Positions 1 through 11,408 of a DNA stretch of 64,000 nt are shown here, piece by piece. A program made the position numbers and the translations under genes. Below the pieces are notes generated by a model. It did not search any database. It was not told where the DNA came from and saw only the letters and a list, made by a program, of their open reading frames with translations. The stretch is from Streptomyces sp. S4.7 (GTDB lineage: Bacteria > Actinomycetota > Actinomycetes > Streptomycetales > Streptomycetaceae): assembly GCF_010384365.1 (NCBI RefSeq), contig NZ_CP048397.1, forward strand, positions 4,278,001 through 4,342,000. Direction: 5' to 3'. The stretch's first letter is position 1. Every line of letters starts with the position of its first letter.

Positions 1-2
1 CG

Positions 3-416
3 GAGGCCGAACTCAGACTTAACCAGCGGACGGCCGGCAGCGACCCGCCGTACATCGCGTACTTCGACGAAGTGGAGCTTGCTGCCGAGATAGGCCACTG
101 CTTTCGCGACCTGGGACGTTCCATCGAAGCTGCGCAGCGAGGTGGGGTCTCCATCTTTGGCGACGGCCTGAACAACCGAAGCGACTTCTTCGCGACGATG
201 GTTCAGGCTGAGACATACATCAATCAAGGGGAGATCGGCCGTGGATTCGAAATAGCGCTGAGCGCGCTGCAACTCGGCGAGGGGTTGAAGTCTGCGCGCT
301 GCATTCAGTACGTGCGGGAATTCCAGGGGCGCGTCACGAGCGGGATGAGGCGGGTCGCGGAGTTCCGCACATTCGAGGAACAGGCCCGTGGCTTCCGCCT
401 ATGGCAACAGGCGTGA
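3..416 (+). CDS. C-terminal part of an XRE-family regulator with TPR-like helices (5' end outside window)
   Basis: The reading frame is open from base 3, so the gene begins before the window. About 137 residues are visible. They run through YIAYFDEVELAAEIGHCFRDLG, here seen as the helical pattern YFDE..LAAE.G.C..DLG, to the stop at 414-416. This pattern is typical of the TPR-like C-terminal half of actinobacterial XRE regulators, where it is thought to bind a ligand or partner. The DNA-binding domain is not visible, so the call rests on the tail alone. An internal GTG at 72 is probably not the start, because the homologous-looking helix begins upstream of it. It converges with the kinase gene and the two stops are only 5 bases apart. 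Confidence 0.6.
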   Translation, partial: EAELRLNQRTAGSDPPYIAYFDEVELAAEIGHCFRDLGRSIEAAQRGGVSIFGDGLNNRSDFFATMVQAETYINQGEIGRGFEIALSALQLGEGLKSARCIQYVREFQGRVTSGMRRVAEFRTFEEQARGFRLWQQA

Positions 417-421
417 CGTTT

Positions 422-1324
422 CTAGAACGGCGCCCAGTCCCGGCGAGACCCACCCGATCGTAGGCTTTGCACCCGCTTCTCAACTTCCTCGGCCGCGCGT
501 GAATTGGTGCTGGCATTCTGGGAAAGCCACGTGACCATCAGAAGTTCCCGGATGCTTCGCAGAACTGTGTACCCGGACCATTCCCGCACGTCGAACCCGT
601 ACCCAGCGACAAAATCGGCGTACTCGGCTTCCGTGTGCCAGCCAAAGCTGTCGTAGTACATGGCAGTCTGCATGAGGTCCCACTCGCGGGGGCCTATAAC
701 GAAACCATCCATGTCGATGACCTTTGGGTGACCGGCCGCGTCGTGCAGGACGTTACCCACGTTGAAGTCCCCGTGCAGATGACCCGCCGGAAGCTCAAAG
801 CGGAGGCGGCCGTACTCAGCAACCAAATCTTCGGCCATAGACTGGAGAAAAGCGCGGGTGGCGTCCGGAATGGCGGCACCCTTCAAACGCTGCGTAACTC
901 TATCGAAAGGTTCAAGCGACGGGAGCGAAAAGGGAGGCGACTTCAAATCGTGAAGCCGCCGCAGCAGCGCGCCCATTTCTCCTGTACTCGCGTACGCATC
1001 TCCGTCGGAAAGACCTTCCCAGAACGTCACCGGGTGGCCCTGAATAACAACCGGCTGTTCGGCCGCCGTGACGAGTCGCGCCGCCGGATACCCCTCGGAC
1101 GCGAGCCATTCCGCCACGGCCACTTCCCTGCGTACGGAGGGAAGCCGATCGGGACTGCGGCCGACCCGGGAGACGATACGGCCGCCGTCTAGACGGAACA
1201 CGGCATGGTCGCCGAACCGCAGCATCTCGATCCCGTCCGTGCCCACGTCCGCGACCTCGCACGCCTTGCGCAATATGGCGCCCGCCGCGCCAGCGTCGAA
1301 CTCAGTCCTTTCGGTCGTCGTCAT
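422..1324 (-). CDS. Aminoglycoside-phosphotransferase-family kinase
   Basis: This is a 300-aa protein of the APH/choline-kinase fold (PF01636 type), a soluble enzyme that moves the ATP gamma-phosphate to a small-molecule hydroxyl. The catalytic loop HGDFNVGN is at residues 184-191 (Asp186 would be the catalytic base). The metal-binding IDMDGF follows at about 203-208, then the family-typical GPREWDL. The length is normal for the family. The ATG overlaps the stop of the upstream GntR gene as ATGA, so the two are translationally coupled and the GntR protein probably controls it. The substrate cannot be read from the sequence; antibiotic inactivation, homoserine-like or thiamine-like kinase roles are all possible. 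Confidence 0.8.
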   Translation of the reverse strand: MTTTERTEFDAGAAGAILRKACEVADVGTDGIEMLRFGDHAVFRLDGGRIVSRVGRSPDRLPSVRREVAVAEWLASEGYPAARLVTAAEQPVVIQGHPVTFWEGLSDGDAYASTGEMGALLRRLHDLKSPPFSLPSLEPFDRVTQRLKGAAIPDATRAFLQSMAEDLVAEYGRLRFELPAGHLHGDFNVGNVLHDAAGHPKVIDMDGFVIGPREWDLMQTAMYYDSFGWHTEAEYADFVAGYGFDVREWSGYTVLRSIRELLMVTWLSQNASTNSRAAEEVEKRVQSLRSGGSRRDWAPF

Positions 1325-1773
1325 GCCGTCTGAGTCCCCCGTCCGGCCGGCAACGCACGTACTTCCCGCCCCCGCGCGGCACCCTTACCGATGAGGCCTT
1401 GCCCCTCCATCTGCGCGATGGCAGAACGGACGGCCGTCCGCGACGCTCCGAACCGTTCGCACAGCTCCTTCTCTGTGGGGAAACGGTCGCCGATGCTGAC
1501 CCCGTCGACCCGCAACAGGTCGGTCACCTTCTCGACCAACGGTCGGCGGTCGCCGCTCCCTGCGACGTACCACCCAGCTCCCTGAACCGACTCGATGACG
1601 CCCTCAGCCCTGAGCGCGGCAAGGGCCCGCTCGATGGTGCTGCGGCTCACGCTGTACTCACTCACCAGCGCCGACTGAGACGGCAGCGCCTCAGCGATCT
1701 CGCCGTTCCTGATCTTTTCGTGAAGGGATTCCGAGACCTCCAGGTACGTACCTCGCGGACTGACCTGCGGCAC
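1321..1773 (-). CDS. GntR-family regulator made of two tandem winged helices
   Basis: A 150-aa DNA-binding protein. I chose GTG at 1773, because AGGAGAGGAGACC lies just upstream as a ribosome site; a longer reading to 1884 adds residues of no visible family. Two GntR-type winged helix-turn-helix units follow one another. The first covers roughly residues 8-70 (LPSQSALVSEYSVSRSTIER, then a GAGWYV wing). The second covers roughly 78-143 (FPTEKELCERFGASRTAVRS, then a GRE wing). No effector-binding domain follows either one, which is unusual for GntR proteins. It is the first gene of an operon with the downstream kinase (ATGA overlap). Confidence 0.75.
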   Translation of the reverse strand: MPQVSPRGTYLEVSESLHEKIRNGEIAEALPSQSALVSEYSVSRSTIERALAALRAEGVIESVQGAGWYVAGSGDRRPLVEKVTDLLRVDGVSIGDRFPTEKELCERFGASRTAVRSAIAQMEGQGLIGKGAARGREVRALPAGRGTQTA

Positions 1774-1986
1774 GTGGTCTCCTCTCCTCTGGCCTCGACA
1801 GCAACCCAGTGTCGCGTCACGTGTCAAGTTTTCCACGTCCCGCAGGACACGCCGATGGCCTTGCCTCCCTGTTCCGGTCGGCATCGCTCGGGCTCAGGAG
1901 CCGCATCCCGTCTCATGCCAGCCTCGAAGTGACGGGGTGTAGGTGAGAGACACGCGCTTACGGATCAGAAGGCGGTCTGGTGGCCG

Positions 1987-3138
1987 TCAGAGGGCTTGGA
2001 GACGCGAGCTCCGGCGACGGCGGTCACCAAGACTGATGACGTTGTCCATCGCCCGCGCTGCTGGGTCGATGGCAATGTCGGGCGCCAGCGACCGCATAAG
2101 CACTGGGTGGAGCCCCAGTTCTTCGGAGGCCTGGAGGAGAGACGGGGGCTCACCATACTTGCGGCCTAGCATCGCCCTCATGAGGGTTGGCTGTTCCGCG
2201 TGGACTACCACAGGCTCACTGGTCCTCCAGCCCCGAGCGCCGAGCTGCTTGTAGAGACTTTCTCGGCGAGTCTGATCGATGTGTCCGAGATCGTAGGCGC
2301 GGTTGATGAGCGCTTGGATGGACACCCCCCACCGCTTTTTGAGAGCAGCGAACTCTCTGAGCATCAACGGTCCGTTGAAAGCCTCTGCAGCCCGCTCTCT
2401 CGGCAACAGGAATGCGCCGGCGAACCGATGTGCCTCACTCTCCGCGCGCTTGGAATCCAGCCCGTTACGGCGCGCCGGGTGGAGCACTAGGTGCCCCAGC
2501 TCGTGCGCTGTCGTAAACCGCTGCCTGTCTCCGCTACCGGCGGAGAAGTAGCTGATCATGGATGGCTCAGATGTTCCTCGCCAGCAGGAGGCACCGGAAT
2601 GTCCCACCACGATGTCCTCCCCTTGGCCTTGGGAGTCCACCAGCATCAGAGGGACGACAGGGATACCCGCACGCTCGCAGGCCCGGATAACGTGCCCAAT
2701 CACTCCGTCAGCGCCGATTCCCAGAGCTGCGCGGGTCTGTGCAGCAAGGTCTTCGATGTCGTCGGAGGTGATGTCCCCTTCTGCCCGGGGCAGAGAGGTC
2801 CGGCGCACCTTTGTGTCTGTCATCAGGCGTACGGAAACCCGGTATGCCTCTCTGACTGTCGCCTCGACGCGGGAGACCTCCTTGGCCGACGCGCTGGCCT
2901 TCTTGCGGAACAGCAGCGTGTCGGCAGGGAGGTCAGAAGGGTCAACGTCGAAGAACGACATGGGTGTGCCAGTTGCCTCTGCGATGCGCACCAGCACGTC
3001 GTCGGTAACGAGTTTGATCCCTTTCTGGATCTGCGAGATGAGTGGTTGTGACACCCCAGCAGCCTGCGCAAGCTCCCCCTGAGTGAGCCCCATGAGGAGC
3101 CTCAGAGTTCGAATACGCTCCGCTGGATCACGTGCCAC
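1987..3138 (-). CDS. XRE helix-turn-helix fused to ImmA/IrrE-type zinc metalloprotease
   Basis: A 383-aa fusion. Residues ~6-62 form an XRE domain (GELAQAAGVSQPLISQIQKG). Residues ~150-250 hold an ImmA/IrrE peptidase domain with the zinc motif HELGHLVLH (HELGH at 212-216) and a downstream ESEAHRFAGAFLLP helix that supplies the third ligand. Family members cleave a repressor or antitoxin to derepress phage, mobile-element or DNA-damage genes (ImmA, IrrE). GTG at 3138 is preferred because AGAGGG sits 8 bases upstream; GTG 3147 is the alternative. It overlaps the upstream gene by 11 bases. Having repressor and protease on one chain suggests a self-contained sensor. Target and trigger are unknown. 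Confidence 0.8.
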   Translation of the reverse strand: MARDPAERIRTLRLLMGLTQGELAQAAGVSQPLISQIQKGIKLVTDDVLVRIAEATGTPMSFFDVDPSDLPADTLLFRKKASASAKEVSRVEATVREAYRVSVRLMTDTKVRRTSLPRAEGDITSDDIEDLAAQTRAALGIGADGVIGHVIRACERAGIPVVPLMLVDSQGQGEDIVVGHSGASCWRGTSEPSMISYFSAGSGDRQRFTTAHELGHLVLHPARRNGLDSKRAESEAHRFAGAFLLPRERAAEAFNGPLMLREFAALKKRWGVSIQALINRAYDLGHIDQTRRESLYKQLGARGWRTSEPVVVHAEQPTLMRAMLGRKYGEPPSLLQASEELGLHPVLMRSLAPDIAIDPAARAMDNVISLGDRRRRSSRLQAL

Positions 3139-3760
3139 TTCCTTCACCCTCTTCGCGCTGGTCTTCTTCAAACTCGAAGGGCAATGCCAGGCCCTTGTCG
3201 TCTGGGACGAACTCCCAGTCCGTGAACGACTCAGTGTTTCTGGGAAGCTCGAAGTCGAGGTCAAACTTGGGCTGCCGACCCGGCTTCCACTCACCGATCG
3301 GACGAACGATGCGTACGGAGATCTCCCCGCCCTCCTCCGGCGGAGAGAGCCAGACAGCGAGGAGGTTGCTCGCCTCCACACCGAATAGATCGACAGTTCG
3401 ATTGTAGTAGTAGCTGATCCGTGCCTTGTTGCGGCCCGGCGCCGGGATCATGTCAAACGGTGTCGCGTGCAGGAGCCGCAGGGTCATCATCCCGTTGCGA
3501 AGGTGCAGGCGCCCGCTGGAGTTCTTGACTGGCTCCCAGCCTCCGAGGTCAAGTCCTTCGTCGTTTCGCTGCTCGATGAAGCGACGCGCATGGTCCCGGG
3601 CCAGATCAGTGCGGCCCTTGGTGTAGCCCCCGCCCGTCATGCCGGACTCGTCATAGTGGCCGTGGGCGGCTGTGTAAGCGTGGTCAAGAGCCTCATGTAA
3701 CGGACCAGAGAGGCCTTCGGCTGCCGAAGTGATGATCGAAGCGTCCTCGGGTGTGAGCAT
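3128..3760 (-). CDS. Unknown 210-aa partner of the XRE-ImmA protein
   Basis: A 210-aa soluble protein without a signal peptide or membrane segment. The N-terminal half is helical with many His and Asp residues. The C-terminal half looks like beta structure (ISYYYNRTVDLFGVE, LLAVWLSPPEEGGEISVRIV, a WEFVPDD stretch) and ends in an acidic tail. I do not recognise a family. It is the first gene of a two-gene operon and its 3' end overlaps the XRE-ImmA gene. Its ATG lies inside one arm of a perfect palindrome with an AT-rich core, and no ribosome site precedes it, so the mRNA is probably leaderless. By position it could be the toxin, or the target, of the downstream protease-regulator. Confidence 0.6.
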   Translation of the reverse strand: MLTPEDASIITSAAEGLSGPLHEALDHAYTAAHGHYDESGMTGGGYTKGRTDLARDHARRFIEQRNDEGLDLGGWEPVKNSSGRLHLRNGMMTLRLLHATPFDMIPAPGRNKARISYYYNRTVDLFGVEASNLLAVWLSPPEEGGEISVRIVRPIGEWKPGRQPKFDLDFELPRNTESFTDWEFVPDDKGLALPFEFEEDQREEGEGSGT

Positions 3761-3789
3761 GGCGGTTATTTTATAACCGCCATGCTCAC
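3753..3789. promoter_or_regulatory. 37-bp perfect palindrome over a leaderless start (probable autoregulatory operator)
   Basis: The arms GTGAGCATGGCGGTTAT (3753-3769) and its exact reverse complement (3773-3789) are separated by TTT. On the minus strand the centre reads TATAAA and the ATG at 3760 lies 9 bases after it, so the palindrome holds both a -10 box and the start codon. A repressor dimer here would shut off the 210-aa gene and the XRE-ImmA gene. The other arm carries a mirror-image ATG at 3782, which opens only a 14-codon frame. Confidence 0.65.
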
Positions 3790-4218
3790 GGTATCAATCT
3801 CGCCGCACGCATCTACGGGGCGCACTTGAGGTGGTCATGCGGGACAAACGGGTTAGACCCGCTCTGGATGATCGGGCTCCAAGCGTCAAGGGTTTTCTGT
3901 GACGGACGTATCTCGCCAGATACGTCCAATGTGCCACGTCATGGACAGGGCCTCCAGCCCCTCAGCGAAGGGGGCAGCGAGCCGCGCACCCCTTCTGACC
4001 TGCCCCGTGAACCCCTACGAACGCCCCAGGACGGCCACGCTCACAGTTGGAACGCGCGCGTGCCGCGGACATCGCATCCTCGAATCGGCATGGGCGGACC
4101 TGCTTGCTCTGGGGAGCTCTCAGTTCAGGTCATCGACGGTCCTTAAGGTGGAGTGGGGTCGCCTGCGAAGGCAAGTGTTCGCCTGTTTCGCGGTGTGAGT
4201 GCCTGCGACGATGTCAGC
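3790..4218. other. Long intergenic stretch with one strong hairpin
   Basis: No convincing gene is seen here. The open frames present (for example 3826-4146) have no family features and poor ribosome sites. A perfect 10-bp stem, GGACGTATCT with loop CGCC and AGATACGTCC, lies at 3904-3927. It lacks a T tract and may be an operator or a structured RNA element rather than a terminator. GTG at 4153 could extend the next gene upstream. Confidence 0.4.
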
Positions 4219-4611
4219 ATGTCGACGCCTGGAACGCCTCTCCCCGCTGCGCTCATCCCCGACTGCACCGAACTGGAAGCTCACCGTGCTGCCTACAAGA
4301 GCGCAAAGACCAACGATGCGATCTTTGTCTGCATCGCTCGCCAGGGATCGCGCTGGAAGGTGGAGCTTGACGCATTCTCCAGCAGCGGGCCCAGCATCCC
4401 GGAGCAGGCAGTTGCTGTCCTGCAGTCCGCGATTGAAGTACTGGTAGCTGACGGCACGGTGACGCAGGCCAACATTGCGCCGGACTACATCTCCATCAGG
4501 GCGATCGAGGGCGAGCGGAAGGCACGCGAAATCGCGGCTGCGCTCCAAGCCGCCATGCACGGACTCCGGCAGCTATACATCGCCGTTCCAGTCCCGCGCG
4601 GCCGGGCTTAG
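4219..4611 (+). CDS. Hypothetical protein of about 130 residues
   Basis: The product is 130 aa from ATG 4219, or 152 aa if GTG 4153 is used; neither has a good ribosome site. It shows an alternating pattern AIFVCIARQGSRWKVELDAF that looks like a beta hairpin, then a long amphipathic helix (IPEQAVAVLQSAIEVLVADG) and a second helix rich in Ala near the end. There is no signal peptide or membrane segment. I do not recognise a family. It lies immediately before the left copy of the att-like repeat. The start is uncertain. Confidence 0.45.
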   Translation: MSTPGTPLPAALIPDCTELEAHRAAYKSAKTNDAIFVCIARQGSRWKVELDAFSSSGPSIPEQAVAVLQSAIEVLVADGTVTQANIAPDYISIRAIEGERKAREIAAALQAAMHGLRQLYIAVPVPRGRA

Positions 4612-4687
4612 CCTCTGAGGCTCGCGCCGGCGTTCGGGGCAGCGCGGTGAGCAGAGGTTAGGCATAGCCCTCTTCGCCCCGTGAGCG

Positions 4688-4872
4688 GCGGTCTCAGTCG
4701 CGGTCTCATTTGCCATCGGGTCCGGCACTTTCCGCCGCCGTCTGCTGGCATCCGTGAACCCTCGCTGAGCAGGTCGTACGTCCGTATCGCGGATGGCCGT
4801 GGACGCCCTCGGACCGCGATCGGGCAACTTGTAATGCGCGCCTCTGACTCGGGATGCGTTATGGCGGCTCAT
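4688..4872 (+). repeat. Left copy of diverged ~185-bp att-like repeat
   Basis: It aligns end to end with 7451-7634. Shared blocks are GCGGTCTCAG, GCGGTCTC, ACCCTCG, CGGAC near the middle, GATCGG, CTxGTAATGCG and a terminal GGCGGCTC. The first 151 bases match a 150-base block in the right copy without large gaps. The tRNA-like tail here (CTTGTAATGCG at 4828-4838 to GGCGGCTC) has lost its T-arm, so this looks like a decayed attachment site. Confidence 0.7.
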
Positions 4873-4907
4873 CCGCGTTCGAGTGCGGCGTTTGATAGAC
4901 GTACACC

Positions 4908-6179
4908 ATGATCCCTGCGACCCGCTCAGCCGAGCCGAGTACCCGGTTCGAGCACCTTGGTGACGCTGACCTAGTGATTGACGCGGTCTACGCCGGTGGG
5001 ACCTTCGGGCACTCTGGCGATGACCCCATCAGCAAGCTCATTCCCGGTACCGGCAACCAGGGAGGATTTCGCTACGCGGGGTCTCCGGCACAGGGGACCG
5101 TCCGCCTGGCTGTGCTGTACACCAGTGGCGGTGCTGTGGACTGGCCGGACCACCTGGATGTGGAGACCGGTACCTTCACGTACTACGGCGACAACCGGAC
5201 CCCGGGTAAGGGGCTTCACGAGACGCCGCGCAAGGGCAACGTGCTGCTGCGCGATGCCTTCGAGCTCTCACATGGCACCGCACAGCAACGGGCCAGCGGC
5301 GTGCCGCCGTTCCTGCTCTTCGAGAAGGCTGCGCCTGGCCGGAGTGTCCGTTTCCGCGGGTTGCTGGCTCCCGGGGGGCCGACTCTGGCGCCGGACGATG
5401 AACTCTCCGCCATCTGGCGGGCAACTGGCACCCGCCGGTTCCAGAACTACCGCGCGCGCTTCACGGTGTTGGACGAAGCCAGTGTCCCGCGTACCTGGAT
5501 CCGCCACCTACTGGCGGGTGGCGATCCTCTCGGGGGCGACTGTCCGGAAGCCTGGCGGACCTGGGTTGCAAGCCGTGTCTACAGGCCGCTGCTGGCCCCT
5601 GCTACGACGGTCATACGCTCGACAGCTCAGCAGTTGCCCGATGATCCGGTCGGGCAAGCCATGCTGTCGGAGATCCGGGAGTACTTCCGCGGGCGGGAAA
5701 CAGAGTTTGAGGCATGTGCTGTGGCTATCTGGCGTCTGATTGCGCCGGCCACCGGGACGGTGGACGTGACACGTCCCAGCCGTGACGGTGGCCGCGATGC
5801 CGTCGGCTCGTATGTCCTTGGGCCGCCGGCGGCTCCCATCAGCATCGACTTCGCCCTGGAGGCCAAGTGCTACGGGCCGGGCAACAGCGTTGGGGTTAGA
5901 GAGGTCTCCCGGCTCATCTCCCGAATTCGACACCGGAACTTCGGAGTGCTCGTCACTACCTCGCACTTCAACCAGCAGGTCCAGAGCGAGGTGCACGAAG
6001 ACGGGCATCCGATCGCCCTGGTCTGCGGGCGTGACATCACAGACGCGCTCCGCCAGCACGGCAGGACCACTCCCGCGGCGGTGAAGGACTGGCTGCAGCA
6101 GAGCTTCCCTGGAACTCAGGCGGGCCTGGAACAGAGACTCGATCAAACCGCTGCGCAAGATCCTTCACGTGGCAGATAG
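4908..6179 (+). CDS. Modification-dependent restriction endonuclease, AspBHI-like N-terminus plus Mrr catalytic domain
   Basis: A 423-aa protein. Residues ~15-200 resemble the N-terminal domain of AspBHI-type enzymes (GFRYAGSP near 53-60, a FTYYGDNRTPGKGLHETPRKGN stretch read as FTYYGDN..PG..LHETP.KGN near 90-111). That domain is known in the MspJI/AspBHI group to recognise modified cytosine. Residues ~263-400 form an Mrr-type PD-(D/E)xK nuclease, with DGGRDAVG at 293-300 and EAK at 318-320, so the catalytic acids and lysine are present. It probably cuts foreign DNA carrying 5-methylcytosine. The HNH gene downstream overlaps it by 11 bases. No methyltransferase lies nearby, as expected for type IV-like restriction. 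The modification recognised is inferred from the family. Confidence 0.8.
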   Translation: MIPATRSAEPSTRFEHLGDADLVIDAVYAGGTFGHSGDDPISKLIPGTGNQGGFRYAGSPAQGTVRLAVLYTSGGAVDWPDHLDVETGTFTYYGDNRTPGKGLHETPRKGNVLLRDAFELSHGTAQQRASGVPPFLLFEKAAPGRSVRFRGLLAPGGPTLAPDDELSAIWRATGTRRFQNYRARFTVLDEASVPRTWIRHLLAGGDPLGGDCPEAWRTWVASRVYRPLLAPATTVIRSTAQQLPDDPVGQAMLSEIREYFRGRETEFEACAVAIWRLIAPATGTVDVTRPSRDGGRDAVGSYVLGPPAAPISIDFALEAKCYGPGNSVGVREVSRLISRIRHRNFGVLVTTSHFNQQVQSEVHEDGHPIALVCGRDITDALRQHGRTTPAAVKDWLQQSFPGTQAGLEQRLDQTAAQDPSRGR

Positions 6180-6987
6180 TTGGCATATGCCTGTCGAGAC
6201 CAGTGAAAACGACGAGACCCGAGCGCCCGACGGGACGCCGTGGTGGGACCTCACCATCCAGCCCGGCACAAAGGCGAAGCCCTTCGGCCAGGAGAAGCGC
6301 CTCGCCGCCTGGCTGTGGTTCAACAAGAGCCTGGGCGACACGTTCACGATGCGCGAACTTCGTGCTGCCCTGGGGCCGGATATCGCCGACAACGCCGAGC
6401 ACCTCAACCGACGCCTGCGGGAACTCCGCAAATGCGACTGGAGCATCCCTTCCCAGCGGACCGACAGCACCTTGGCTCAGGACGAATACCGGCTCAAGGC
6501 CAAGGGCGGACAGATCTGGCTTCCCGGCGAGAGGGACAAGTACAAGAAGTTCGCCCCCAGCGCGCGCATCCGCCGCCTGGTCATGGACCAGGACGGTTCG
6601 CGGTGCAGGATCTGCGGACTGGGGCCCGACGACACGTACTACGAGGACGGGGAACGGGTCCGGCTCACCATCGGTCATCTGGTTCCGCAGGAGCGGCTGA
6701 AGTCACGAGGGGCCCGGGACGATCTCAGCAACTGGCGCACTGAGTGCTCCCGCTGCAACGAGACTGTGCGTGATGAGGTCCCCGACCCGGAACAGCTCGA
6801 CGAAGTCCTGGCTGGGCTCAAGCGGCTCACCGCCAAAGAAGCAGGACAGCTTCTCGAATGGATGCGGAAGGGCGAGCGACCGCGTTCCCGGGTCGACCAG
6901 GCGTACGACCGCGCACGCCGACTGGCTGCGCCGGACCGTGCCCGAGTTATCGGGAAGTTGGCCGAGCGCCTTGGCGAGACAGGCTGA
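6169..6987 (+). CDS. HNH endonuclease with N-terminal helical domain
   Basis: This is 272 aa from GTG 6169; ATG 6187 is an alternative. Both starts keep the gene next to or overlapping the upstream nuclease. Residues ~40-92 form a winged-helix-like unit (FTMRELRAALG, NAEHLNRRLRELRK). Residues 146-196 form an HNH nuclease with two zinc CxxC pairs (C146/C149 and C193/C196), the catalytic His170 in TIGHLVPQ and Asn188 in DLSNWRTEC. The C-terminal ~70 residues are helical and charged. The architecture is that of restriction enzymes. Coupled translation with the AspBHI-like gene suggests that they act together as one defence module; this is inference. Confidence 0.8.
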   Translation: MADSWHMPVETSENDETRAPDGTPWWDLTIQPGTKAKPFGQEKRLAAWLWFNKSLGDTFTMRELRAALGPDIADNAEHLNRRLRELRKCDWSIPSQRTDSTLAQDEYRLKAKGGQIWLPGERDKYKKFAPSARIRRLVMDQDGSRCRICGLGPDDTYYEDGERVRLTIGHLVPQERLKSRGARDDLSNWRTECSRCNETVRDEVPDPEQLDEVLAGLKRLTAKEAGQLLEWMRKGERPRSRVDQAYDRARRLAAPDRARVIGKLAERLGETG

Positions 6988-7097
6988 CCACCAGGCCGTA
7001 CATGGGTCGCAGCAGGGTTGCAGCAGGACGCGGAGGCCTCGGACCAGTTCCGGGGCCTTCTGCGTGTAGAGAGCAGCGAGGCGTTACGGTTCGGCGC

Positions 7098-7382
7098 ATG
7101 GGCATTCCAAGGTGGGCCGGTCGCGTGACGGCCGCAGTCGTTGTGGCCGGGGCGTTGATCATTCGGCGTGCGCTCCAGGATGCTGCGGCGCAGTCAGAGT
7201 CCGCCTCGGACTCCGGGTACGACTGGTCCCAGAACGAGACCAATTGGCACTGGCGTTGCGAGTGCGGCGCCAAGTCTCGCGGCGGCGATATCAAGGCTGA
7301 CACGGAGTACAACGCCCAGCGGCACCAGTGGCGCGCAGGTACGGGGCACCCGATGCCTGAGGTCTATCAGAAGCCCTTGTAG
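7098..7382 (+). CDS. Small membrane-anchored protein of unknown function
   Basis: A 94-aa protein. The N-terminus (RVTAAVVVAGALII) is a single membrane segment or uncleaved signal. The rest is a short hydrophilic domain with a WRCECG motif and a conserved-looking His/Trp pair (QRHQWRAGTGH), which could bind a metal. The ribosome site is weak. It is the last gene before the right att-like repeat and may belong to the nuclease module. I do not recognise a family. Confidence 0.45.
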   Translation: MGIPRWAGRVTAAVVVAGALIIRRALQDAAAQSESASDSGYDWSQNETNWHWRCECGAKSRGGDIKADTEYNAQRHQWRAGTGHPMPEVYQKPL

Positions 7383-7450
7383 GTCGTAGCCGCCGGGAGC
7401 TGTCGACGGGCAACGCTGGAGGCGTTGTGGCCGAAGGGGACGAGGGCGGC

Positions 7451-7634
7451 GCGGTCTCAGTTGCGGTCTCGCTTGCCACCCGTTCCGGGGCTGTCCGCTC
7501 ATGTCCACCGGGGCCTGACAACCCTCGTGACCAGGCGCGGAGCCGACTCCACAGACGCTCGCGGACGTCCCCGGACCAAGATCGGACAACTCGTAATGCG
7601 TAGGTCTCGGGTTCGAATCCCGAAGGCGGCTCTG
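7451..7634 (+). repeat. Right copy of att-like repeat, ending in the 3' half of tRNA-Thr(CGT)
   Basis: This is the counterpart of 4688-4872, 2763 bases further on. The last 42 bases (7590-7631) read as a tRNA 3' half: anticodon loop CTCGTAA (7590-7596), 3' anticodon strand TGCGT, variable AGGTC, T-stem TCGGG/CCCGA around TTCGAAT, acceptor 3' strand AGGCGGC and discriminator T. The 5' bases do not pair with it (GACAA instead of ACGCA before the loop), so it is not a functional tRNA. Identity that starts at the anticodon loop and runs to the tRNA end is how actinomycete integrative-element att cores usually look. Confidence 0.8.
7590..7631 (+). other. tRNA-Thr(CGT) 3' fragment, probable attR core
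   Basis: The T-arm and 3' acceptor strand are complete, while the D-arm and 5' acceptor strand are absent. The intact tRNA gene should lie at the other junction of the element, outside this window to the left. Confidence 0.75.
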
Positions 7635-7639
7635 TGAAG

Positions 7640-7680
7640 GCCCCAGAACTCACTCGCCGTGATCTGGGGCTTTTGCTTTT
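7640..7680 (+). terminator. Intrinsic terminator behind the tRNA fragment
   Basis: The stem GCCCCAGA (7640-7647) pairs with TCTGGGGC (7663-7670) across a 15-base loop and is followed by TTTTGCTTTT. It is probably the original tRNA-Thr terminator, left on the chromosomal side of the attachment site. Confidence 0.75.
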
Positions 7681-7847
7681 ACCGGGGCCGGGGGCCGGGG
7701 CGTGACCCGGCGCCGGGGGCGGAGGTGACCCCCCTCGTGGCTTCGGATCCTGGCCCGGCTCCAGGAACGCGGCGGTCGGCGAGCCCGAGGCGGACCCCTG
7801 ATCCTCAACGAGCCACAACGATCAGTTGTGCGTGCCTAAGGTGAGCC

Positions 7848-8174
7848 GTGGACACCGAGGCACTGCGATCGTTCGTCCGGGCCGCCCGGCTCGGGCAGTT
7901 GCGGCGTGGCGCCGATGAGCTGGGCGTGACGCAGCAGGCGGTTCCCAAGTGGATCGCCGCGCTGGAGCGGGAGTTGGATGTCCGTCTGTTCACCCGTACC
8001 GCCCGGGGAGTCGAGCTGACGCTCGACGGCCAGGCGTTCCTCCCCCACGCGCGGAGCATCGTCGCGGGTGTCGAGCGTGCCGTCGCCGCGGTCAGGCCGG
8101 GCTCCCGTGCCCTGCGGATCGACGTGCTCGGTCTGCGAAGCGCGCGGGCCGTCGCTCTGCACTACTACTGGTAG
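7848..8174 (+). pseudogene. LysR-family regulator truncated after the DNA-binding domain
   Basis: 108 residues remain of a family that is normally near 300. The LysR winged helix is intact (LRSFVRAARLGQLRRGADEL, then VTQQAVPKWIAALERELDVR and LFTRTARGVELT), and the linker helix follows. The frame then stops at TAG (8172-8174) just after the first strand of the effector domain (LRIDVLGL). No effector domain is found in another frame. It is the first chromosomal gene after the right att-like repeat, so the truncation could be old and unrelated to integration. The start is GTG 7848. Confidence 0.7.
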
Positions 8175-8227
8175 GGCGATGGCGAGTCCTGTATCAGTCA
8201 CCGGAACACCGGATAAGGATCGTGGCA

Positions 8228-8770
8228 ATGTCCAGCGACCGTCTCATGCGCATCCACAGCGACGAGTTCCGAGCCATGGCCGACAGGGTCCTGAGGGCCA
8301 CCGAGCTGACCACCCGCCTGAATGTCCTGCCCTTCGACGACGACGCGGCCAAGGCGGAACTGTTCGAACAGATCCTCGGCAGGCCGCTGCCGCCGAGAGT
8401 CACGATCTATCCGCCCTTCTACACGGACCACGGCCACAACTTGGAGCTGGCCGAGCGCGTGTTCATCAACCAGAACTGCACGTTCCTGGACTACGCCGGC
8501 ATCCGGCTCGGCGAGCGCGTGATGGTCGGTCCGAAGGCCACGTTCATCACGGTCGGCCACCCCGTCGATCCCGAGGAGCGAAGGGGGTGGCTGAGCGGAG
8601 CGCCCATCGATGTGGCGGAGAACGTGTGGATCGGCGCCGGTGCCACGATCCTTCCCGGTGTCAGCATCGGCCGTGACGCCGTGGTCGCCGCAGGGGCCGT
8701 CGTGACGGAGGACGTTCCGGCGGCAAGCCTGGTGACCGGCAGCAAGGCGACCGTCCACCGGCGGTGGTGA
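8228..8770 (+). CDS. Sugar O-acetyltransferase, maltose/galactoside acetyltransferase type
   Basis: This is 180 aa from ATG 8228, with AGGA about 8 bases upstream. Residues ~1-45 match the small helical N-terminal domain of maltose acetyltransferases. The rest is a left-handed parallel beta helix of hexapeptide repeats. The family's active-site stretch is present (NQNCTFLDYAGIRLGERV, then FITVGHPVDPEERRGW with the catalytic His, then VWIGAGATILPGVSIG). The enzyme moves acetyl from acetyl-CoA to a sugar or similar hydroxyl in the cytoplasm. A second member of the family lies at 24513-25079. The substrate is not evident. Confidence 0.85.
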   Translation: MSSDRLMRIHSDEFRAMADRVLRATELTTRLNVLPFDDDAAKAELFEQILGRPLPPRVTIYPPFYTDHGHNLELAERVFINQNCTFLDYAGIRLGERVMVGPKATFITVGHPVDPEERRGWLSGAPIDVAENVWIGAGATILPGVSIGRDAVVAAGAVVTEDVPAASLVTGSKATVHRRW

Positions 8771-8795
8771 CCACGACCTCGCCACAGGGGCCAGG

Positions 8796-8850
8796 GCGCT
8801 GAAACCGCTCTGAAACAGCGCTGAATGCGCCCTGCCGCAGCCTCTGCGGC
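8796..8850 (+). promoter_or_regulatory. Three 11-bp direct repeats (SARP-type operator) and a 7-bp inverted repeat before a truncated ABC gene
   Basis: GCGCTGAAACC (8796), GCTCTGAAACA (8807) and GCGCTGAATGC (8818) are spaced exactly one helix turn apart, as in SARP-activated promoters. GCCGCAG-CCT-CTGCGGC (8834-8850) abuts the ATG at 8851. A SARP gene lies just downstream on the other strand, now truncated. That the two belong together is inferred. Confidence 0.5.
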
Positions 8851-9165
8851 ATGACGACAACGACTCCCGAATCACACGCCATAGCGGCCAAGGGGCTGCG
8901 CAAGTCCTACGGGGACAAGCTCGTCCTCGACGGCATCGACCTGCGCATCCCGGCGGGCTCGGTGTTCGCGTTGCTGGGACCGAACGGTGCCGGGAAGACC
9001 ACCGCCGTGAAGATCCTGTCGACGCTGATCATTGCCGACGGCGGACAGGCGCGGGTCGGCGGTCACGACCTCGCCGCCGATCCGCAGTCGGTGCGCGCCG
9101 CGATCGGTGTCACCGGGCAGTTCTCCGCGGTCGACGGTCTGATCACCGGCGAGGAGAACATGCTG
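8851..9165 (+). pseudogene. DrrA-like ABC transporter ATPase, N-terminal fragment
   Basis: About 105 residues remain of a ~320-residue drug-exporter ATPase. The Walker A motif GPNGAGKTT and the Q-loop region (IGVTGQFSAVDGLITGEENM) are intact. The signature, Walker B and switch motifs are missing. After GEENML (about 9165) the reading frame runs into the reverse strand of a SARP gene and yields only Arg/Pro-rich nonsense. The loss is a clean junction, not a single frameshift. It cannot work as an ATPase. Confidence 0.8.
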
Positions 9166-10258
9166 CCTGCTCGCAGTTGTCCAGGACCAGCAGCGCCGGC
9201 CCGGTGCCGAGCGCGCCGAGGATGCCGGACACCAGCGCGGCCGGGCCGGTGCCGCCCCCGGCGCCGGGCCGCCCCTCGCCCGTACCGAGCGCGGAGGCCA
9301 CCTCGGCGGCGACGTCCGCGTCCGCGGTGACACCGGCGAGCGGCACGAAATACTCCACCCGCTGCTCGGCCCGGCGGCTGACGGCGTGTGCGATCCGGGT
9401 CTTGCCGAGACCGCCGGGGCCGACGACGGTGACCGCGCGAGAGGTGCGCAGCAGCCCCTGGAGGGCCGCGATGTGGTCGTCCCTGCCGAGGAGCGGGTTC
9501 GGCTCGTGCGGCACGCCGTGTCTGACCACGGGCGCCTCACCGAGCAGCAACTCCTGCTGTACGGCCTTGAGTCCGGCGCCCGGATCCGTGCCGAGATCGT
9601 CGCGCAGCTCGCGGCGGTACGCCTCGTACCGCGCCAGCGCCGCGGACGGGCCCGTCGTCGCCGCCACGCCGCGCAGCAACTCGGCGAGCACCTCCTCGTC
9701 GCGCGGGTGCTCCGAGGCGGCCAGGCCCAGCGGACCGGCCGCCTCCGCGCGCCGTCCCAGGCGCGCGAGCGCGAGCGCACGCGTACGTATGAGGGCTCCG
9801 CGCACCGGCTCGCGCTCGGTGCGCAGCGCGTAGACGGGGTCGTCGGTGTCGCCGGCCCCGTCGGGCGTGCCCTCCCACAGCGCGAGGCCGGCCTCGGCGG
9901 CGGTGAGGGATCCCGCGTAGTCCCCGGACCTGGCCCGCTCCGCGCTCGCGGCTGCGTGCAGCAGCAGGGCGGAGGTGTCGACCTGGTCCTCGGCGAGGGC
10001 GAGCCGGTAGCCGGTCGGTGTGCTCGCGATGAGATCGGCGCCCAGTTGCGTCCGCGCCCGGGAGACGAGTACCTGTAGTGCCCGACCCGGCCGCTCCGGC
10101 AACTCGTTTGGCTGCCACAGCCCTTCCACCAGCCGCTCGGTGCTGCATCCCGTACGCAGGTCGCCCGCGAGCAGCGCGAGGAGCCCGCGCAGCCGGGGAG
10201 CGGTGACCTCGTGTCCGCGGTGGGCGACACGTGGCAGCAGGGTCAGGTCGGTAGTCAC
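9166..10258 (-). pseudogene. SARP/AfsR-family activator truncated inside its NB-ARC ATPase domain
   Basis: About 365 residues are left from GTG 10258. Residues ~1-85 form the OmpR-like winged helix, ~90-240 the bacterial transcriptional activation domain (BTAD), and ~255 onward an NB-ARC/AAA region with the P-loop VGPGGLGKTR and LLVLDNCEQ (Walker B). The frame then crosses into the antisense of the ABC ATPase fragment and stops 7 codons later (9143-9145). SARPs activate antibiotic biosynthesis genes. The DNA-binding and BTAD parts are complete, so a short SARP-like protein could still be active. The C-terminal AfsR-type TPR region is gone. Confidence 0.75.
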
Positions 10259-10479
10259 CCGTGCAGATTAGCCAAGGGGCCATCGGGTGGAGCTGCCGCT
10301 GCCGCCTCTGTTGGGTGTCCCACCCACCGAACGCGACGGAACCCGTCTGGGAACCTTCTGGATCGAGGTTCGGGGACGGGTTCGGATCAGCGGGGCGGCG
10401 GCTGATCGTGGTACTCGGGCCGCCGGGCCCTTGTTGGACGCCACGCCGCCCGTCAGGCGGCGTCGAGGGCTCCAATGAT
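10259..10479. other. Non-coding spacer upstream of the SARP fragment
   Basis: No gene or clear promoter is seen. An open frame crosses it from 10261 but has no family features before ~10480. Confidence 0.4.
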
Positions 10480-10857
10480 CTTGCGGGCCATCACGGCTCG
10501 CTGACCGCGTACGCCACCCTCACCGAGGCGGCCCTGCTGCTCACACCAGGGCCGAGGCGGCAGATCTCCGCCTCCTCGCCCGCGGCACTGCTGGCCGCCG
10601 TCGCGCCGGTGGTCTCACCGGCGTATCCGCTGGAGGAGCAGCTGAGCTACGCGGCGCGCGAGCGCAGGCCCGGCCAGTACGAGCAGGTGGCCGCCCTGCT
10701 GTCCTCGGCGCCGGGCGAGTTCCACCGCCGGATGCGCGCGGTCGTCTACCGGCTGCTCGATCTCGGCGAACCGGCCCACGCGCCCGTCGTGTCACCCCTC
10801 CCGCTGCCACCGGCGCTCGACCGCTGGGAGGCCACGGACCTGGGACTGGCACAGTGA
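10480..10857 (+). pseudogene. Unrecognised gene fragment
   Basis: About 125 codons show Streptomyces-like third-position GC and a helical, Ala-rich product (TEAALLLTPGPRR, EEQLSYAARERRPGQYEQ, FHRRMRAVVYRLLDLGEPAH). No start codon or ribosome site precedes the good part, so the 5' end appears lost. Its stop overlaps the next start as GTGA, the sign of a former operon. No family is recognised. Confidence 0.35.
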
Positions 10858-11408
10858 CGGTCCGGCCCCCGGCGCCGGCGCGGTCCGGGGCCCGGTGGGC
10901 GGACGCCGCGTGGTGCGCGGTGCGGTTCGGCCGTCCGGGCGGCCGGGGGCGCGGGCCGGTCTCGCGCCCGGTGTCGGTGCTCTGGCGGCCGGTGGGCGGG
11001 GCGGGTGCCCCGGCCTCGGTGCCCTGCCACACCCTCGCCCGGCTCGACGGGGCCTTCGAGGGACCGCGGGAGCCGTACGCGTGCGACGTACACCTGCGCG
11101 TGGATCCGGACGCCTCCGAGCGGCGGGACACGGTGTGGTACGCCGATGTGCTCGTCGTCCGCGAGCCGTTGACGACGACGGCGGCCCGCCGCCGTGCGAC
11201 CGAGTTGATCGCGCGGTATCCGGGCTCTCTCGTCGCCGCCGTACCCGACTCCTCGCACGGGTGCGTCCTGGCGGTGCGGGACGGTGCGGACGTATGGGCC
11301 GACCGCCGGCGACTGCCGGCGAACCTCGCGGGCGCGGGCCCTGCTCGACCTCAGCACGGTGTGCGTCCACGCGGGGAAGTACGACGAGGGTCACTCGACG
11401 GCGCGTGA
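10854..11408 (+). pseudogene. Unrecognised protein, probably broken near base 11330
   Basis: The frame is open for 184 codons from GTG 10854. A plausible globular sequence (VRDGADVW and LIARYPGSLVAAVPDSSHG are typical stretches) continues to about 11330. The remainder is the wrong frame of the TPR gene that follows, so the C-terminus looks replaced at a junction. No signal peptide, membrane segment or catalytic motif is seen. It shares a GTGA overlap with the fragment before it. Confidence 0.35.

What the first reader, a model, noticed from the sequence alone, without database searches (positions are those of the whole stretch)
4688..7634. Two diverged att-like repeats bracket a nuclease module; the right one ends in a tRNA-Thr(CGT) 3' half
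Seen: 151 and 150 bases align end to end 2763 bases apart, followed by tRNA-like tails. The right tail is a perfect tRNA 3' half from the anticodon loop to the discriminator base and is followed by a tRNA-style terminator. The left tail has lost its T-arm. Known: actinomycete integrative elements use tRNA 3' ends as att sites. Inference: related elements inserted one after another at the same tRNA gene, lost their integrases and left cargo behind.
Basis: partly seen in the sequence, partly recalled or inferred. Interest (0 to 1): 0.72.

Follow-up and report, generated by a model that had tools for sequence, protein, structure and literature searches.

The report
Composite tRNA-Thr element carrying defence nucleases
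A soil bacterium's mobile element, inserted in a threonine tRNA gene, carries at its end a small pair of defence-type nuclease genes bracketed by two copies of the element's attachment site; the outer copy is perfect, the inner one lacks the tRNA part, and the nuclease pair looks as if it has passed between species independently of the element beside it.

Summary
The repeats are real (4688-4838 and 7451-7600, 70%; score 71 against at most 29 in 500 shuffles). They are right arm plus core of attachment sites of an actinomycete integrative element. The integrase is therefore not lost. The outer site shares 97 identical bases with the tRNA locus, so element plus 2.8-kb nuclease module should excise together and restore the tRNA. 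The inner site keeps arm and core only; recombining there would break the tRNA in silico in 4 of 4 genomes. Three other Streptomyces genomes carry the same module (AspBHI-type nuclease plus HNH protein) at the same tRNA. Module dS is 0.02-0.24, against 0.21-0.67 for dnaX and 0.10-0.92 for the integrase, and the DNA left of the inner core differs in every pair: the module was exchanged without the backbone. Best reading: a known kind (site-specific accretion, CIME-like cargo) in a variant with a tRNA-less inner site. Excision, the lock on the inner site and the route of exchange are inferred.

The parts
1..4687 (.). Right part of the integrative element: APH-like kinase, GntR regulator, RmrA/RmrT-like genes and other cargo. 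The tRNA (G000:C1:4263343-4263417) and integrase (G000:C1:4263464-4264894, -) lie left of the window.
4688..4838 (+). Inner site: right arm (doublet at 4688-4707) and core (4818-4838) without tRNA half
4908..6179 (+). AspBHI-type modification-dependent restriction endonuclease, 423 aa
   Evidence: Pfam PF18062 and PF04471; PADLOC mREase_II 609.6 bits; PDB 4oc8
6169..6987 (+). HNH-domain protein, 272 aa
   Evidence: PF01844 24.8 bits, cut-off 21.4
7451..7600 (+). Outer site: right arm (doublet at 7451-7470) and core (7580-7600)
7589..7632 (+). tRNA-Thr(CGT) 3' half (attR)
   Evidence: identical to the intact gene; joined to the tRNA 5' half it is called a tRNA by ARAGORN
7633..7685 (+). Terminator region shared exactly with the intact tRNA locus

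Best explanation
This is the right end of a composite actinomycete integrative element at tRNA-Thr(CGT). Shown by sequence: tRNA - integrase - backbone - variable cargo - inner arm+core - nuclease module - outer arm+core+tRNA 3' half. Inferred: the integrase recombines the tRNA site (attL) with the outer attR, so element and module leave as one 22.2-kb circle and the tRNA is restored. Inferred: the inner site is the trace of an accretion that joined an element to the module at the core. Because no tRNA half follows the inner core, excision there would destroy the tRNA, and 3 of 4 inner sites also carry a substitution in the presumed overlap; both would keep the module tied to the element as cargo. 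The module is probably a defence cargo (restriction of modified DNA) that spreads between Streptomyces species while the DNA beside it changes, for example when a new element inserts at the tRNA and the old one is deleted between two cores.
For: Intact tRNA, integrase and 97-base attL/attR identity. Arm doublets at -135 (outer) and +139/+140 (integrase side) of the core in 4 genomes. Same order of parts in G132, G134 and G027. Nuclease dS 0.14-0.21 (0.018 for G132/G027) and HNH 0.13-0.24 (0.026), against dnaX 0.57-0.67 (0.21), a second flanking gene 0.48-0.65 (0.22) and integrase 0.76-0.92 (0.10); right non-coding part and outer arm 93.5-98.9% identical. G132/G027: backbone 92%, module 98.1%, and between them 4.6 and 5.1 kb without a match of 150 bases, up to 26 bases before the arm+core motif. 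attL x outer gives a tRNA in 4 of 4 genomes, attL x inner in 0 of 4. Overlap non-cognate in 3 of 4 inner sites against 4 of 47 sites with an intact tRNA half, Fisher P 0.006 (0.014 with the G164 inner site). G011 has a related integrase and a simple attR without module. Composite excision and cis-mobilisation of tandem elements are in print (PMC3218068, PMC9513070, PMC4057263, PMC5704250; passages).
Against: No excision or circle was observed. Homologous recombination could have spread the module. The 68 bases right of the inner core are only 79-90% identical while the rest of the module is 92-98%; between G132 and G027 79% against 98%, so there the exchange seems to end inside the module, not at the core. 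The C-to-T of the G000 and G132 inner cores may be one event, so the overlap test is not independent, and 13 of 23 tRNA-less sites in the survey keep CTCGTAA. The 7-base overlap is inferred. The arm doublet is intact at the G000 inner site, has 3 mismatches in G132 and was not found at the G134 and G027 inner sites. Integrase dS of G132/G027 (0.10) is also below dnaX (0.21), so that backbone may itself have moved. The translocase gene matches Pfam only below cut-offs.
Confidence: 0.72

Rival explanations
1. The module is a one-armed cassette: a circle of right arm, core and cargo is inserted by an element's integrase, acting in trans, into that element's attR, and can leave again. It borrows both the integrase and the tRNA half of its host element.
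For: The observed order is what this reaction gives. Left neighbours differ while the module is shared. G164 has another cassette between an inner core and an outer attR, and 2.6 kb of it with its right arm+core (89%) lie near tRNA-Pro(CGG) in G240.
Against: No circle seen. No second-arm doublet was found right of the inner core. Overlap changed in 3 of 4 inner sites. In G240C2 the cassette's left end is not at a core.
Confidence: 0.22
2. Whole composites were transferred, and homologous recombination between composites then replaced the module body or the backbone, without site-specific events at the inner core.
For: The lower identity of the first 68 module bases (79-90%), above all in G132/G027, fits a crossover inside the module. 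The shared parts are long enough for homologous exchange.
Against: The left neighbour stops matching within 26-40 bases of the core in the pairs examined, which needs several events ending at the same place.
Confidence: 0.3
3. The arrangement is old and vertically inherited, and the module is merely strongly conserved.
For: Same locus and order in four species.
Against: Synonymous and non-coding sites are also conserved far above the chromosome; 4 of 384 genomes carry it.
Confidence: 0.03

Closest known systems
Actinomycete integrative and conjugative elements (AICEs) at tRNA genes, with accretion at tRNA-Arg in Streptomyces (PMC9513070) and tandem elements in Frankia (PMC3218068)
   Same: Integrase beside a tRNA, direct repeats covering the tRNA 3' half, a conserved remnant at an accretion site (PMC9513070), composite excision (PMC3218068); passages read
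   Different: Here the inner repeat carries arm and core without the tRNA half, and the bracketed cargo is shared by species with different DNA beside it
Cis-mobilisable element (CIME), as defined in PMC5704250 (passage)
   Same: No integrase or transfer gene in the module; attR retained; in tandem with an element that has an integrase
   Different: attL is not retained as a tRNA half; only arm and core precede the module
PAISt of Streptomyces turgidiscabies (PMC4057263; passages)
   Same: Three att sites, with a module between the internal and an outer one; described there as a mobile gene collector
   Different: It uses an 8-base palindrome in bacA and excision at its internal site was detected; here use of the inner site would break a tRNA
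AspBHI (PDB 4oc8) and PADLOC mREase_II
   Same: Full-length similarity, residues 15-397 of the nuclease
   Different: Stands beside an HNH gene; specificity untested

Membership tests
AICE | Tyrosine integrase beside a tRNA 3'-end att site | tested here: met
   tRNA; PF00589 51.4 bits, cut-off 27.1; conserved R, R-H, H and Y boxes visible in the four-way alignment (the boxes are recalled)
AICE | Replication genes | tested here: met
   Prim-Pol PF09250 34.0 bits, cut-off 22.8; DUF3987
AICE | FtsK/TraB-type DNA translocase | tested here: inconclusive
   715-aa protein with AAA-type hits, all below Pfam cut-offs
AICE | Excision as a circle and conjugation | not testable with these tools
   needs junction PCR and mating
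CIME | Integration and transfer genes lost | tested here: met
   the two long genes of the module are nuclease-type
CIME | attR retained | tested here: met
   perfect tRNA half and core
CIME | attL retained | tested here: not met
   inner site has arm and core but no detectable tRNA half
AspBHI-type modification-dependent endonuclease | RE_AspBHI_N plus Mrr-type catalytic domain | tested here: met
   PF18062 194.3 bits, PF04471 45.6 bits; 4oc8 E 8.7e-115
AspBHI-type modification-dependent endonuclease | Cleavage of modified DNA | not testable with these tools
   needs an enzyme assay

The most novel reading that the evidence does not exclude
Streptomyces tRNA-Thr elements serve as landing pads for one-armed cassettes: a cassette carries only right arm, core and cargo, borrows the integrase and the protective tRNA half of a host element, and passes between elements and species at the core. 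Defence genes are among the cargo, and a substitution in the inner overlap then fixes the cassette.
Probability: 0.22. Interest if true: 0.68.

Novelty: new variant of a known kind. Interest (0 to 1): 0.45.

Why it matters
It gives a concrete, testable case of how an integrative element gains defence cargo. An internal attachment site that would cost the cell a tRNA if used ties the cargo to the element, yet near-identical modules stand beside different DNA in different species. It links accretion to the spread of a modification-dependent restriction enzyme, and offers natural variants of one core (one cognate, three with overlap changes) to test which inner sites still recombine.

Tried and rejected
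Left tail as a decayed tRNA half: not above chance by the gapped test, marginal for this genome alone by the ungapped one. Left core as a tRNA-Thr(TGT)-type site because of its CTTGTAA loop: the G000 inner arm scores higher against CGT-type arms (mean 51.6, n = 33) than TGT-type (38.9, n = 16), so not supported (the inner sites' own copies are in the 'none' group of that table). Exact empty site at base 7631: not found; rows outside the genus (L221-L226) were not examined. Module elsewhere: HNH protein in 38 of 384 genomes, 4 of them the carriers (96-100%), the other 34 at 31-36%; nuclease in 8 of 295, 4 of them the carriers, the other four 63-75% identical and three of those interrupted; in plasmids 2 records for the HNH protein and 15 for the nuclease, none above 80% identity. 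The one genome-contig scan gave one locus, Streptomyces griseoincarnatus JCM 4381, taken as G132 because the contig lengths agree (620290). Single-strand fold at the inner core: z = 0.29, nothing. Paper searches: AICE+restriction+attI 0 papers, AspBHI+methylation-dependent restriction+Streptomyces 0, type IV restriction+integrative+cargo+Streptomyces 1, seen in the listing only. Any statement that this variant is unreported rests on searches of an open-licence library. I read passages, not whole papers.

Full report
Observation. The repeats are at 4688-4838 and 7451-7600; a gapped alignment gives about 70% identity and score 71, against at most 29 in 500 shuffles. After the right copy stands a perfect tRNA-Thr(CGT) 3' half and a terminator; after the left copy the similarity stops at GTAATGCG.

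The rest of the element lies outside the window. The window is G000:C1:4278001-4342000, and a second perfect copy of the tRNA half lies 22.2 kb to the left, in an intact tRNA-Thr(CGT). The own-genome searches showed one CGT gene and one TGT gene. The two CGT sites share 97 identical bases, tRNA half plus terminator. Next to the tRNA, on the - strand, is a 476-aa tyrosine integrase (PF00589) without stops and with its conserved boxes, then DUF3987 and Prim-Pol genes, a Tra-like ATPase (Pfam hits below cut-off) and a DUF2637 gene. This is the layout of an actinomycete integrative element. From core to outer core it is 22,215 bases, to the inner core 19,453 (core positions).

Attachment anatomy. 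A doublet of GGTCTC boxes stands 135 bases before the outer core and 139 or 140 bases after the core on the integrase side, in the same orientation, in four genomes. I infer integrase arm sites. At the inner site the doublet is intact in this genome, has 3 mismatches in G132, and was not found in G134 and G027. In 392 genomes of the genus the right repeat matched in 42 at E <= 1e-5, and the core pattern with up to 3 mismatches in 66; the reversed control had no match in the rows shown. Of 77 distinct site sequences in the loci held (one search lists 80 places by my count; identical ones merged), 47 are followed by a tRNA-Thr half (31 CGT, 16 TGT), 7 by a partial one and 23 by none. Those without one include the four inner sites here and sites away from tRNA-Thr, three of them in the neighbourhood of a tRNA-Pro(CGG). 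I did not resolve them all; they show that arm+core also occurs at other places in other genomes.

Comparison. dS: dnaX 0.57-0.67 (0.21 for the sister pair G132/G027), a second flanking gene 0.48-0.65 (0.22), integrase 0.76-0.92 (0.10), nuclease 0.14-0.21 (0.018), HNH gene 0.13-0.24 (0.026). The right non-coding part and outer arm of the module are 93.5-98.9% identical. In G132/G027 the backbone is 92% and the module 98.1% identical, while the 4.6 and 5.1 kb between them show no match of 150 bases or more, up to 26 bases before the arm+core motif. So the module, not the backbone, was exchanged. Against a clean switch at the core: the first 68 bases right of it are only 79-90% identical, which I cannot explain and which fits homologous exchange inside the module.

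Inner site. Joined in silico, the tRNA 5' half with the outer half gives a tRNA in 4 of 4 genomes, with the inner tail in 0 of 4. The inner tail is not tRNA-like above chance in the gapped test. The anticodon-loop heptamer, taken as the overlap (recalled for such integrases, not measured), is non-cognate in 3 of 4 inner sites against 4 of 47 sites with a tRNA half (Fisher P 0.006; 0.014 with the G164 inner site). G000 and G132 share the same base, so this is not fully independent, and 13 of the 23 tRNA-less sites keep CTCGTAA. I infer that the inner site is silent or costly and the outer one is used.

Other cases. G011 has a 17-kb element with a related integrase and a simple attR. G164 has integrase fragments, an inner core, a 3.1-kb cassette (TPR-like by eye, untested) and an outer attR; 2.6 kb of that cassette with its right arm+core are 89% identical to a stretch between tRNA-Pro(CGG) and a tRNA-Pro-like repeat in G240 (the repeat seen by eye). 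G022 has four intact tRNA-Thr(CGT) halves 4.8-8.8 kb apart with another arm type. G201 has an interrupted relative of the nuclease near the right end of a 7-kb stretch between tRNA-Arg(CCG) and a 114-base repeat of it, 89%. Of 24 same-genus loci of the relatives search, 23 were readable: 3 (own included) have a close integrase within about 1.5 kb 3' of the tRNA, 1 a distant one, 19 none.

Cargo. The nuclease is similar to AspBHI over its whole length (4oc8, E 8.7e-115) and scores 610 bits to PADLOC mREase_II; the second gene has an HNH domain. A role in restricting modified phage or plasmid DNA is inferred. It was found at 95% or more only in the four carriers (8 of 295 genomes at E <= 1e-50), and the HNH protein likewise.

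Verdict. Composite excision as one unit is the best-supported reading. Whether the module spread mainly with homologous exchange (0.3) or as a cassette inserted into attR (0.22) stays open; these rivals concern how the module moves and overlap with the best explanation. The kind is known (PMC9513070, PMC3218068, PMC4057263, PMC5704250; passages). The tRNA-less inner site and the exchange of the module across species make it a variant.

Noticed in passing
window 3753-3789: 37-base palindrome (34 of 37 positions equal to its reverse complement) over the start of an ORF matching PADLOC RmrT, beside an RmrA-like HTH/M78 gene; a candidate operator.
   Followed up: partly
window 7686-11400: Right flank looks like a mosaic of truncated genes (LysR-like, ABC ATPase, BTAD-type regulator, named by eye); parts match other chromosomal places in relatives.
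   Followed up: no
L239 and L240 (G022:C151): Four intact tRNA-Thr(CGT) 3' halves 4.8-8.8 kb apart with a different arm type.
   Followed up: partly
L106 and L107 (G137:C1:7889937 and 7911410): The same arm+core twice, 21.5 kb apart, with 8.3 kb around them 99.4% identical and an integrase and Prim-Pol relative next to the first: looks like a tandem element dimer.
   Followed up: no
L242 (G201:C172) 825-7952: 7-kb stretch between tRNA-Arg(CCG) and a 114-base repeat of it (89%) with an interrupted AspBHI-like nuclease near its right end.
   Followed up: partly
window 4839-4907: The bases right of the inner core are much more diverged (79-90%) than the rest of the module.
   Followed up: no
window 7633-7685 and G000:C1:4263418-4263470: attL and attR terminators are identical in this genome but differ in the three relatives, so this element may come from, or be homogenised with, a very close relative.
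   Followed up: no
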